DNA from: a virus | Virus record (IMG/VR): IMGVR_UViG_3300032315_000344 | Coordinates: 1-22,310 of that record | Direction: 5' to 3' (one strand) | DNA: 22,310 nucleotides | Shown here: positions 2,270 to 5,448 of the stretch, piece by piece | Position numbering within the stretch: position 1 is the stretch's first letter | How the letters are laid out: each line of letters starts with the position of its first letter | Made by a program: the position numbers and the translations under genes | The notes under the pieces: generated by a model | Database searches by the model: none | What the model saw: only the letters and a program-made list of their open reading frames with translations | What the model was told of the DNA's origin: nothing

Positions 2270-2971
2270 ATGGCTACGAAGGCAACGAAAGCATCAACGA
2301 ATGGCCACGTAAATCGTGTGGCTGAGGCTCTTGAATCAATGGGCAGCGAGCAGGCGGTGCGAGTGACTGCACCAAACTTCAAGTCTGCCGAGTTTAGGGT
2401 GGTCGGAACTGCGCCGTACGTGCAACTGGCGTTTGGCGAGAAGGCCCGGAACATCCTGCGGGCAAATCACGCCGCTGGCTCAACTGCCAAGAAGGGGAAG
2501 AAGCGGGAGGCGAAGGACTTTGACGGGCTCTTTATCGCGGCTCAGCACATCAGCCACGAGGGCTGGTCTGGCATTCCAGCCAGTGCGTTTCGGCACGCGA
2601 TGGTGGAGGCCTGCACTCTCGTGGACTTCCACAAGACCAAGGCAAAGAAGGCGGTCTTTATTGAGCCGCACGGGTTCGACAAGTCGGAGGGCCAGCCGCT
2701 GGTGCGAATCAACGGAAAGCCCAAGCACGTCGAGCACACGGTTCGCAACGCGAACGGTCAGCCCGACATCCGGGTGCGGGCGATGTTCGACGCCGGGTGG
2801 TCTACCACTCTCCGCGTGACGTTTGACGCGGATCTGTTCACGCTGACTGACATTACCAACCTGCTGATGCGGGCCGGGATGCAGGTGGGCGTGGGCGAGG
2901 GGCGGCCGAGTTCCAAGAACGGGATTGGAATGGGTTGGGGCACGTTTTCCATCGAAGGAGGCAAGGCATGA
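2270..2971 (+). CDS. phage protein of a conserved family, possibly RAMP/Cas7-like fold
   Basis: The ATG at 2270 follows CAAAGGAGAT; an upstream in-frame ATG at 2195 would overlap the previous gene and has no such signal. The product is 233 aa. After about 35 variable residues it reads FRVVGTAPYVQ, a Lys-rich KKGKKREAKDFD segment, GIPASAFRHAMVEACT (101-116), a middle domain with INGKP and IRVRAMFDAGW, and a Gly-rich C-terminus (206-233: VGVGEGRP, GIGMGWGTFSIEG). I recall similar uncharacterised proteins next to annealases in many phages. The GIPASAF segment and the C-terminal Gly-rich loop resemble the pattern of RAMP-superfamily RNA-binding proteins. That fold is an inference, not a match. 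It is coupled to the next gene by ATGA and lies just before the GGC array. Confidence 0.8.
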   Translation: MATKATKASTNGHVNRVAEALESMGSEQAVRVTAPNFKSAEFRVVGTAPYVQLAFGEKARNILRANHAAGSTAKKGKKREAKDFDGLFIAAQHISHEGWSGIPASAFRHAMVEACTLVDFHKTKAKKAVFIEPHGFDKSEGQPLVRINGKPKHVEHTVRNANGQPDIRVRAMFDAGWSTTLRVTFDADLFTLTDITNLLMRAGMQVGVGEGRPSSKNGIGMGWGTFSIEGGKA

Positions 2972-3429
2972 ACGAGCATCGGCTGTCGGTGACGGGCGAG
3001 CTTGAGCACATTCGCCAACAGCATGGAGGGCTGCTAAGGCCAGAGGATGTGGTTGCGTTTGCCCGCAACAAGCGGACCGCGCTCCACGGGGAGTTTGAAT
3101 GGAACGACGCAAAGGCTTCGGCGGAGTTTCGGCTGGAGCAGGCGCGTCGTGTGATTCGAGTGGCGGTGACTGTGCTGCCGTCTCCGCACTCGGATCAGGA
3201 GCCTGTTCGAGCATACGTGTCGGTGGCCAGCGACCGGGTGCAACCCGGCGGCGGCTACCGCTCGTTCGCTGACGTGATGACTGACGACGACATGCGTTCG
3301 GAGTTGGTCAACGAGGCGATTGGCGAGGCAAAGCGGTGGCGTCGAAAGTACGAGCGGCTCCGCGAGCTGTCTCCGATCTTTCGTGCCATTGACAAAGTTG
3401 AGGCCAAACAGGAGCAGGCGGTTGCGTGA
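2968..3429 (+). CDS. conserved phage hypothetical, partner of the upstream gene
   Basis: The start at 2968 forms an ATGA overlap with the upstream stop; an in-frame ATG at 2935 would give an unusual long overlap. The 153-aa product begins with a helical region (ELEHIRQQHGGLLRPEDVVAFAR), then a motif I recall from other phages, ALHGEFEWNDAKASAEFRLEQARRVIRV (about 38-65). It continues with a beta segment (VRAYVSVASDR, GGGYRSFADV) and a long charged helix at the C-terminus (about 105-150). I know no biochemical function. The two coupled genes look like a functional pair. The stop codon is followed within three bases by the repeat array. Confidence 0.8.
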   Translation: MNEHRLSVTGELEHIRQQHGGLLRPEDVVAFARNKRTALHGEFEWNDAKASAEFRLEQARRVIRVAVTVLPSPHSDQEPVRAYVSVASDRVQPGGGYRSFADVMTDDDMRSELVNEAIGEAKRWRRKYERLRELSPIFRAIDKVEAKQEQAVA

Positions 3430-3431
3430 TA

Positions 3432-3885
3432 TGGCAGGCATGGCGTGGCGCGGCATTGCAAGGCGAGGCAGGAACGGCACGGCACGTCGCGGATAGGCGT
3501 GGCAGTCTAGGACAGGCGAGGCCCGGCATGGCATGGCACGGCAAGGCAGGCATCGCACGACCCGGCTCGGCACGGTAAGGCAGGCGTGGCTAGGCAGGGC
3601 GCGGCCTGGTCCGTCTTGGCTTGGCAGGCACGGCTAGGCAGGGCATTGATCGGCACGGCGCGGTTAGTCGCGGCAGGCTAGGCGTGGCCCGGCCCGGCAA
3701 GGCATGGATCGGCAGGCATGGAAAGGTGCGGCATGACATGGATAGGCACGTCAGGCACGGCTAGGCGGGACACGGATAGGCGGGACACGGCAGTCGTGGC
3801 AGGTCGAGGATAGGCGAGGCGCGGCGCGGCCCGGCAGTCGCGGCTAGCTGCGGCACGGTAAGGCATGGCAGGCACGGCGGAATGG
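3432..3885 (+). repeat. array of degenerate GGCNN pentanucleotides
   Basis: About 455 bp made almost entirely of short units beginning GGC: mostly 5-nt GGCNN (GGCAC, GGCAT, GGCGC, GGCTA, GGCCC), interspersed with 4-nt GGCA and occasional decayed units (GGATA, GACAC, GTCGC). By hand I count roughly sixty GGC triplets, all in the same orientation. The bases after GGC vary freely, so this is not a simple microsatellite. One exact internal duplication, TAGGCGGGACACGG at 3762-3775 and 3777-3790, has a 15-nt period, or three units. There is no + strand ORF of note, and minus-strand frames give only spurious Pro/Cys/His/Arg-rich peptides. The array fills the gap from one stop codon to the next Shine-Dalgarno. 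Confidence 0.95.
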
Positions 3886-3898
3886 AAAGGAATCCAGT

Positions 3899-4627
3899 AT
3901 GACTTTTGATTTCACGAAAGTTTCGATAGTAAACGCAGACGGTCCGGACGTTGACGTGGACAACACGCCATGGGCCGACGATGGCGTAAATGTTAAAGCG
4001 TACTTTGGCGAGTTGGCTTCGCCATTGGCGTACCACATATCACAGTCCAAGTTTGTTGTTGGTTGCTGTGCGTGGCTGACGCACGAGCGAGTCATTGAGT
4101 CGCTCGGATGCGTTCAGTGCGGCTGCCAAATCATATGCCAGAAAGAGGATTTTCTGCGCCCAGATGCAGTGTCTTCTCGCGGCTGGAAATCTCGTCTACA
4201 CCGCTTGTATTCCACGCTTTCATGCCGGATAGGGAGGCATGATTGCGCTAAGGTGGCGGAAATGCCAGAGCTTAGCGTTTGCATGGACATGGGGGAGATG
4301 GAGCCTGTCCGTTGCGTAGGGAACCATAACTCGGACAAGCACCCAGCCTTTCCACGAATGCACCACAAGTTCCTCGTGTTTTGCGACTTGCTGGAGCTTG
4401 AAAGTGAAGATCCTTTTTATCAGTGGCGACCAAAGCCAAAGGCCGTATGGACGGGCTCATTTAACCCAACTGCAAACGGAACTCGCAGTAGGGAAAACTC
4501 GGTCGTCATCGAGGGTGAGCACATCGCGCTGGCCTACTTCCGCGAGTGGTACCAGATGTTCGCATTAAGCGAGCCTCTTGAGTGGAAAAGCGAGTGGTGT
4601 GCTCCCGAATACAGGATTGGCACATGA
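3899..4627 (+). CDS. phospholipase D-like (single HKD) nuclease-family protein
   Basis: A 242-aa protein starting after AAAGGAATCCAGT. The N-terminal half has the layout of a PLD-like domain, including a Cys-rich stretch (SLGCVQCGCQIICQ) where related proteins have a strand and loop. The C-terminal half has the catalytic signature: RMHHKFLVFCD (H155, K157), then after an unusual insertion VWTGSFNPT (G186, S187, N189), then ENSVVIEGEHIALAYFREW, typical of single-HKD PLD nucleases that act as dimers. The expected HKD aspartate (162) is Cys, with Asp shifted to 163. It may still be active, act as a DNA-binding or toxin-like protein, or be inactive. Codon use looks more AT-rich than the neighbours, suggesting acquisition. 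It directly follows the GGC array and overlaps the next gene by ATGA. Confidence 0.75.
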   Translation: MTFDFTKVSIVNADGPDVDVDNTPWADDGVNVKAYFGELASPLAYHISQSKFVVGCCAWLTHERVIESLGCVQCGCQIICQKEDFLRPDAVSSRGWKSRLHRLYSTLSCRIGRHDCAKVAEMPELSVCMDMGEMEPVRCVGNHNSDKHPAFPRMHHKFLVFCDLLELESEDPFYQWRPKPKAVWTGSFNPTANGTRSRENSVVIEGEHIALAYFREWYQMFALSEPLEWKSEWCAPEYRIGT

Positions 4628-5448
4628 GCAGCTGGTTCCCATTCTTCGGCCGCGACTTTCTAACCGCCACCAGCGGTTGGACGGCGGAGGAACGTGGCCA
4701 CTACATGACGCTTCTGATCGTCCAGTGGGAGCAGGGAGTGCTGCCCGATGACGCCACGCGGCTCGAGTTGATCTCGCCGGGCTTAGCCGGGTGCTGGGTT
4801 GTTGTGCAGGAGAAGTTTCCGAAGTGGAAGGACGGCAAGCGCCGGAACATCCGCCTGGAGCACGAACGGTCTAAGTCCCACGAACGGAGCGAGCGGGCTC
4901 GTCAGTCCGCCTCCAAGCGTTGGGAATCCGGCGTGTCAGACGGTGACCTAACCGAGCCTGACAAACCGCCGGAAATGCGAACGGATATGCCCGAGCAATG
5001 CGAACGCACATGCCCAAGCATTGCTCAGGCAGATGCTCCCATGTCCATGTCCATGAAGGGTACTTCTTCTTCCGCACGAGCGAAGGATTGGCCGGCACTG
5101 CGGGAGGCATGGAACGCCGGTTGCGGAGTCCGCTGGAGATCGTCCAGGCCATCGGACACCGTGATGGCCGCATTGTCGGAGGACGGATGGATGGAAACAG
5201 CACTTCAGGCCATCGGACACCTGCCGAAGTGCCTGTACTTCGATGACCCGGTGACTCTCAACCAGTTCTGCAAGCCGGGCTTTGTTGACGAGGTTTTGGG
5301 CGGGAAGTGGAACAACCGCAAAAGGCGGAAGCATGAGAGCAAAGACTTCGCGGACTCGCCACCGCCACCAAAAGCGTTCACCGGCGACGTAGCCGAAGCG
5401 TTTGACCGTACCCGTAGAAAACTTGCAGCCGCCAAGGAGGGCACATGA
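4624..5448 (+). CDS. DUF1376-type phage replication protein
   Basis: The ATG at 4624 overlaps the upstream stop (ATGA); an in-frame ATG at 4582 is inside the previous gene. The 274-aa product has an N-terminal DUF1376/YdaU-like domain (about 1-95) with SSWFPFFGRDFLTATSGWTAEERGHYMTLL and LPDDATRLELI, the usual opening of phage replisome-organiser proteins. A low-complexity linker (95-150) follows. The C-terminal domain (about 155-235: DWPALREAWNAG, LPKCLYFDDPVTLNQFCKPGFVDEVLGGKW) also recurs in phage replication proteins. It probably helps load the replisome or helicase at the phage origin. No helicase gene is visible here, so host helicase use is likely. Confidence 0.8.
   Translation: MSSWFPFFGRDFLTATSGWTAEERGHYMTLLIVQWEQGVLPDDATRLELISPGLAGCWVVVQEKFPKWKDGKRRNIRLEHERSKSHERSERARQSASKRWESGVSDGDLTEPDKPPEMRTDMPEQCERTCPSIAQADAPMSMSMKGTSSSARAKDWPALREAWNAGCGVRWRSSRPSDTVMAALSEDGWMETALQAIGHLPKCLYFDDPVTLNQFCKPGFVDEVLGGKWNNRKRRKHESKDFADSPPPPKAFTGDVAEAFDRTRRKLAAAKEGT

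What the first reader, a model, noticed from the sequence alone, without database searches (positions are those of the whole stretch)
3432..3885. A 455-bp array of degenerate GGCNN units fills an intergenic gap
Seen: roughly sixty GGC triplets in one orientation, mostly every 5 nt (sometimes 4), with the bases after GGC varied, so ordinary slippage does not explain it. The array begins three bases after one stop codon and ends just before the Shine-Dalgarno of the next gene. Five is coprime to three, so it is not coding. I recall similar low-complexity stretches in other phage genomes, with false Pro/Cys/His-rich proteins annotated on the reverse strand, but know no described function. GG every 5 nt with 3-nt loops could form two-layer G-quadruplexes on the + strand. 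Other ideas: an annealase recombination hot spot, a long non-coding RNA read by a periodic RNA-binding protein, or a decoy for a host nuclease.
Basis: partly seen in the sequence, partly recalled or inferred. Interest (0 to 1): 0.88.

Follow-up and report, generated by a model that had tools for sequence, protein, structure and literature searches.

The report
Phage VIPR guide-RNA array
The odd GGC-every-5-bases stretch is very probably a guide-RNA array of VIPR, a phage weapon related to CRISPR that was described in a 2026 preprint; the spare bases between the GGCs would spell out which DNA of a rival phage to bind.

Summary
In detail: 92 units of degenerate GGCNN fill window 3433-3882 between two genes (lag-5 autocorrelation z = 10.9). 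It is not an orphan curiosity. Arrays of this kind sit, on the same strand and usually within 100 bp, next to one protein family (phrog_4652), encoded here at 2270-2971. A profile of that family matches a solved chain called 'SUSP1 Vipr protein' (PDB 36pp, E = 1.1e-32), and its AlphaFold model has the Csm3/Cas7 RAMP fold. This is the VIPR system (bioRxiv 2026.04.26.720920): Vipr uses vrRNAs of GGY/NN repeats, and the NN pairs read DNA with one skipped base per pair. The window holds Vipr, an adjacent accessory gene not found in SUSP1, and a long, tail-less array cut by twelve 4-nt units (eleven GGCA, one GTCA) into 11 blocks of 7-10 units. In related phages, single blocks match rival phages' DNA-methylase gene by the 1-nt skip rule (18/18), while the carrier's own allele mismatches (14/18). 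I found no significant target for this window's own blocks. Known kind, new member; the GGCA punctuation may be new detail.

The parts
2270..2971 (+). vipr gene: RAMP (Cas7-like) RNA-guided DNA-binding protein, phrog_4652, 233 aa
   Evidence: profile to PDB 36pp 'SUSP1 Vipr protein' E 1.1e-32; AlphaFold pLDDT 90.3; best PDB folds Csm3/Cas7, Z 11.9
2968..3429 (+). accessory gene (candidate vap), phrog_15946, 153 aa; ATGA overlap with vipr
   Evidence: same family found beside vipr in 108 of 212 vipr loci; AlphaFold pLDDT 95.4; no PDB fold match; no homologue in SUSP1
3433..3882 (+). VIPR guide array: 92 GGCNN-type units in 11 punctuated blocks plus a 2-unit remnant
3437..3470 (+). block 1, NN = AT-GT-GC-AT-AA-GA, ends in GGCA
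3471..3504 (+). block 2, NN = AC-AC-AC-GC-TA-GT
3505..3548 (+). block 3, NN = TA-CA-GA-CC-AT-AT-AC-AA
3549..3582 (+). block 4, NN = AT-AC-CC-TC-AC-AA
3583..3626 (+). block 5, NN = GT-TA-AG-GC-CT-CC-TT-TT
3627..3675 (+). block 6, NN = AC-TA-AG-AT-TC-AC-GC-TA-GC
3676..3714 (+). block 7, NN = TA-GT-CC-CC-AA-AT-TC
3715..3753 (+). block 8, NN = AT-AA-GC-AT-AT-TA-AC (ends in GTCA)
3754..3792 (+). block 9, NN = AC-TA-GG-AC-TA-GG-AC
3793..3836 (+). block 10, NN = GT-AG-GA-TA-GA-GC-GC-CC
3837..3870 (+). block 11, NN = GC-TA-GC-AC-AA-AT
3899..4627 (+). downstream gene, weak PLD-like domain; membership in the system not shown
   Evidence: PF13091 E 6e-4, below the curated cut-off

Best explanation
The array is the guide (vrRNA) array of a phage-encoded VIPR system. 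It is transcribed on the + strand behind vipr and the accessory gene. Vipr monomers, RAMP proteins of the Cas7 kind, coat the RNA one per 5-nt unit, each holding GGC; the two free bases (NN) of each unit pair with double-stranded DNA whose sequence reads NNxNNxNN (one skipped base per pair). Binding represses genes of competing phages. In this architecture a 4-nt unit (GGCA) shifts the phase every 7-10 units and so marks off about eleven separate short guides. Shown here: the array, its linkage to Vipr, Vipr homology and fold, hypervariable NN on a constant GGC scaffold, regular punctuation, and, in related phages, single blocks that match rival phages' genes by the 1-nt skip rule. Taken from the preprint, not tested here: transcription, RNP formation, repression. 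Inferred: that the window's own blocks are functional guides, that one Vipr sits on each unit, and that GGCA is the boundary.
For: Of 138 viral loci picked only by a degenerate array, 91 carry the window-type protein by a 5-sequence profile and 117 after iteration, against 3 of 54 viral loci with other repeats. In the converse test, 70 of 80 loci picked only by the protein have an array within 1.5 kb. The nearest array is on the same strand as vipr in 91 of 92 loci, median gap 29.5 bp. Profile to PDB 36pp SUSP1 Vipr E 1.1e-32 and to SUSP1 itself E 8e-36. Predicted fold is Csm3/Cas7, Z 11.9. The preprint describes GGY/NN vrRNAs, the 1-nt skip rule and phage targets. Guides turn over: window and L325 are 81% identical in DNA over vipr and the accessory gene, yet share no NN run longer than shuffled (3 against mean 3.0). 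The decoding works in relatives: the L332 block at 2153 matches L334 and L255 18/18 and its own allele 14/18; L334 block 5559 matches L255 23/24 against 17/24 in itself. The target is a phage DAM-like/GNAT gene. With skip 1, 11 guides score 18 or more, against 1, 1, 1 and 4 for skips 0, 2, 3 and 4, and 1-5 for scrambled controls.
Against: No significant target for the window's own blocks: exact hits in viral contigs 0, 7, 7, 4 against 3 for a scrambled control, and no self or relative target. Blocks are short (6-9 NN) next to the 9-16 repeats reported. No 3' tail like SUSP1's fits before the next ATG. No promoter found by the simple scan. The skip-1 excess is modest, and a few of its hits are low-complexity.
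Confidence: 0.93

Rival explanations
1. It is a VIPR array, but the GGCA breaks do not delimit guides: longer overlapping vrRNAs run across them, as in the preprint's 'staggered arrays with overlapping vrRNAs', and the 4-nt unit has another role (processing site, tail start or register change).
For: The preprint names staggered arrays but its supplement could not be read here; window blocks are shorter than the 9-16 repeats reported for type II; no tail is visible between blocks.
Against: In L332 a block that starts right after a GGCA break matches its target from its first NN and stops before the closing AA-AA; the next block hits a site 57 nt away in the opposite order, so the two are separate guides.
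Confidence: 0.35
2. The G-rich strand forms two-layer G-quadruplexes that stall polymerase or ribosomes.
For: GG recurs every 5 nt.
Against: C at position 3 is as conserved as the second G; linkage to a Cas7-like protein and decoded targets stay unexplained.
Confidence: 0.02
3. It is mutational debris of a simple GGCAN satellite with no function.
For: Simple GGCAG and GGCAA repeats also occur in viral contigs.
Against: Constant GGC with free NN, regular GGCA punctuation, fixed strand and position beside vipr across diverged phages.
Confidence: 0.02
4. It is a recombination hot spot for the RecT-type annealase encoded at 842-1531, or a nuclease decoy.
For: A RecT/Bet annealase lies 1.9 kb upstream.
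Against: The tight partner is Vipr, within tens of bp on the same strand; neither idea predicts decoded targets in rival phages.
Confidence: 0.01

Closest known systems
VIPR (Viral Interference Programmable Repeat), bioRxiv 2026.04.26.720920 / PMC13142463
   Same: Vipr protein family by sequence, RAMP fold, phage genome, GGY/NN tandem repeats beside the gene, hypervariable NN, and the 1-nt skip rule in relatives.
   Different: Nothing contradicts it. The window array is one long tail-less GGC array cut by GGCA units; whether this equals the preprint's 'staggered arrays' cannot be checked without the supplement.
SUSP1 VIPR (type II), phage KT454805
   Same: Homologous Vipr at 28474-29061 on the minus strand (E 8e-36).
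   Different: SUSP1 has four separate GGT-rich vrRNAs with structured tails and a different accessory gene; the window's accessory protein finds no homologue in SUSP1.
Class 1 CRISPR-Cas (Csm3/Cas7 backbone)
   Same: Fold of the RNA-coating subunit (Z 11.9 to Csm3) and the idea of periodic interruption of guide-target pairing.
   Different: No CRISPR repeats/spacers; guides are made of 5-nt units with 2 free bases; one small RAMP protein. The genes examined here gave no cas family match.
TRAP (trp RNA-binding attenuation protein) leader
   Same: RNA triplets repeated about every 5 nt read by a repeating protein (from my own knowledge).
   Different: TRAP reads constant NAG triplets in about 11 copies and is unrelated in fold; here the free bases carry the information.

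Membership tests
VIPR | Vipr protein of the family to which SUSP1 Vipr belongs | tested here: met
   A3 profile to PDB 36pp E 1.1e-32; SUSP1 genome hit E 8e-36
VIPR | RAMP/RRM fold of the Cas7 type | tested here: met
   AlphaFold pLDDT 90.3; all leading PDB matches are Csm3/Cas7 RAMPs
VIPR | vrRNA of tandem GGY/NN units beside vipr | tested here: met
   92 units, 63 GGC and 5 GGT; starts 3 bases behind the accessory gene
VIPR | NN hypervariable, GGY constant | tested here: met
   no shared guides with an 81% identical relative
VIPR | encoded by a phage | tested here: met
   terminase, portal, prohead protease in the window
VIPR | adjacent vap accessory gene | tested here: inconclusive
   a conserved adjacent gene exists; its identity with vap1-6 cannot be checked without the supplement
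VIPR | targets read by the 1-nt skip rule | tested here: inconclusive
   supported in relatives L332/L334/L255; no significant target for the window
VIPR | transcribed vrRNA bound by Vipr; DNA binding and repression | not testable with these tools
   needs RNA sequencing, pull-down and reporter assays
VIPR type II (SUSP1-like) | SUSP1-type accessory gene beside vipr | tested here: not met
   profile of the window's accessory protein finds nothing in SUSP1
VIPR type II (SUSP1-like) | separate vrRNAs each with an invariant 3' tail | tested here: not met
   one continuous array; about 16 bases between its end and the next ATG
CRISPR-Cas | array of identical repeats and unique spacers with several cas genes | tested here: not met
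   5-nt degenerate units; no cas match among the window proteins scanned

The most novel reading that the evidence does not exclude
A distinct punctuated VIPR architecture: about eleven very short guides (6-9 NN, 12-18 read bases) are strung together without tails or spacers, and a one-base phase shift (GGCA) alone marks where one guide ends and the next begins. Carriers of such arrays in one habitat target each other's DNA-modification gene while their own allele differs at the read bases.
Probability: 0.35. Interest if true: 0.65.

Novelty: new member of a known kind. Interest (0 to 1): 0.45.

Why it matters
It explains a long-unannotated kind of phage sequence, often mis-annotated as proteins, including in isolated mycobacteriophages (genus Cheoctovirus) and gordoniaphages that are easy to grow. 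These give ready laboratory systems for testing VIPR outside E. coli. The decoded guides allow phage-against-phage targeting to be read from metagenomes. The GGCA punctuation makes a specific, testable prediction about where guide RNAs begin and end.

Tried and rejected
(1) RNA structure: the array folds no better than shuffles (z 0.37). (2) Rfam: no match in the window and five related loci except one tRNA elsewhere, so no hammerhead ribozyme of a listed family. (3) Targets of the window's blocks: exact spaced patterns of blocks 6, 3, 10 and 5 gave 0, 7, 7 and 4 hits in viral contigs, against 3 for a scrambled control, so chance level. Two block-10 hits (L413, L415) lie at the end of what looks like the capsid gene of phages that share packaging genes with the window; a lead only. 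(4) Self-targeting: none. (5) NN spectrum against codon positions 1-2: r 0.40 against -0.17 to 0.04 for other phases; suggestive, not used as proof. (6) Function of the accessory protein from its fold: no PDB match with E below 0.1, only three phage hypotheticals. (7) Literature on such repeats in phages other than the VIPR preprint: none found. (8) My first target test used whole blocks and was swamped by simple repeats from actinobacterial genomes; redone with complexity filter and local scoring.

Full report
Observation. The 3433-3882 stretch is a genuine 5-nt periodic array: 63 exact GGC, spacings of 5 or 4 or their sums, lag-5 autocorrelation z = 10.9 against dinucleotide shuffles, no GGCNN x6 expected by chance, one array of 92 units with GGC the best-scoring of all 64 triplets. 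It starts three bases after the stop of one gene and ends before the Shine-Dalgarno of the next.

Relatives by array alone. Many contigs hold two or more degenerate arrays. Among isolated phages, similar arrays occur in Mycobacterium phages of genus Cheoctovirus, Gordonia phages and cyanophage Cy-LDV1, with ORFs annotated over some of them.

The partner protein. In the five isolated phages examined, the array lies beside homologues of two window genes, 2270-2971 and 2968-3429. Profiles from these five showed the first protein in 91 of 138 loci chosen only by a degenerate array, against 3 of 54 other viral loci; iteration raised this to 117 of 138. Conversely, 70 of 80 loci chosen only by the protein carry an array within 1.5 kb; in at least two of the other ten (L327, L369) the match runs to the contig end. 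The nearest array is on the protein's strand in 91 of 92 loci, with a median gap of 29.5 bp, and 26 loci have arrays on both sides. The second protein often directly follows the first, with overlapping stop and start.

Identity. The profile of 100 members matches PDB 36pp, 'SUSP1 Vipr protein', at E 1.1e-32. The AlphaFold model of the window protein (pLDDT 90.3) matches Csm3 and other Cas7-family RAMPs. The preprint PMC13142463 defines VIPR: a RAMP protein Vipr and vrRNAs of alternating GGY and NN, in which the NN pairs recognise double-stranded DNA with one skipped base, used against competing phages. The SUSP1 gene was confirmed with my profile (KT454805, 28474-29061 minus, E 8e-36), while the window's accessory protein has no homologue in SUSP1. 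SUSP1 units are GGT-rich with long tails. The window system is therefore a VIPR, but not of the SUSP1 type.

Array anatomy. Twelve 4-nt units (eleven GGCA, one GTCA) split the array into 11 blocks of 7, 7, 9, 7, 9, 10, 8, 8, 8, 9 and 7 units and a two-unit end. No random placement of 12 breaks in 100,000 is as evenly spaced. Across the loci, GGCA is by far the commonest 4-nt unit (720 occurrences; next CGCA with 44), and gaps of 8-13 units are common, with a peak at 11. In 498 GGCA-ended blocks AA is enriched in the last two NN (0.26 and 0.19 against about 0.10 elsewhere). Between the window and its relative L325, 81% identical in DNA across vipr and the accessory gene, the longest shared NN run equals that of shuffled blocks: scaffold kept, guides replaced.

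Code test in relatives. With the 1-nt skip, 11 guides reach local score 18 among the fetched loci, against 1, 1, 1 and 4 for skips of 0, 2, 3 and 4, and 1-5 for scrambled controls; some of these 11 are low-complexity. The clear cases come from L332 and L334, two contigs of one metagenome. L332 block 2153, which begins right after a GGCA, matches L334 and L255 at 18/18 bases and its own allele at 14/18. L332 block 2212 and L334 block 5559 match L255 at 22/24 and 23/24, and their own alleles at 18/24 and 17/24. L334 block 5363 fits the L332 allele (18/20) better than its own (15/20). In these matches the skipped base is the codon wobble position. The target is a phage DAM-like methylase plus GNAT gene. 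This supports, on data gathered independently here, inter-phage targeting and self/non-self distinction at the read bases.

The window's own targets. None is significant. Likely reasons are short blocks, exact-match searching and an unsampled rival.

Judgement. Membership in VIPR is firm at the level of protein family, fold, repeat grammar and setting. Function of this copy is inferred. The kind is already described, so novelty is low; the GGCA punctuation and the decoded mutual targeting may go beyond the main text of the preprint, whose supplement I could not read.

Noticed in passing
L375:5674-9659: Array of about 821 units (4 kb) between vipr and the accessory gene in a 114-kb viral contig; no block is repeated.
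   Followed up: partly
L332:2362-3657, L334:5708-7000, L255:296-1625 of the minus strand: Phage DAM-like/GNAT gene that lies just behind the array in L332 and L334 and is also the target of guides in related phages.
   Followed up: yes
L321:3951-4337, L323:3920-4243: Annotated 'hypothetical proteins' (Donkeykong gp48, UmaThurman gp40) that are array DNA read as an ORF; probably false genes.
   Followed up: no
L063, L042, L061: Contigs with three or more separate arrays, in L063 on both strands; perhaps other VIPR types.
   Followed up: no
window:3899-4627: Gene right behind the array with a weak PLD-like nuclease domain; could be cargo or a further accessory gene.
   Followed up: no
L101 (Patescibacteria), L095 (Fibrobacteres), L157 (Alphaproteobacteria), L188, L191: Vipr-family genes near GGCNN arrays in bacterial assemblies, perhaps prophages or chromosomal VIPRs.
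   Followed up: no
window:6056-7174: Phage-encoded DNA polymerase III beta clamp a short way downstream of a primosomal-type gene (4627-5448).
   Followed up: no
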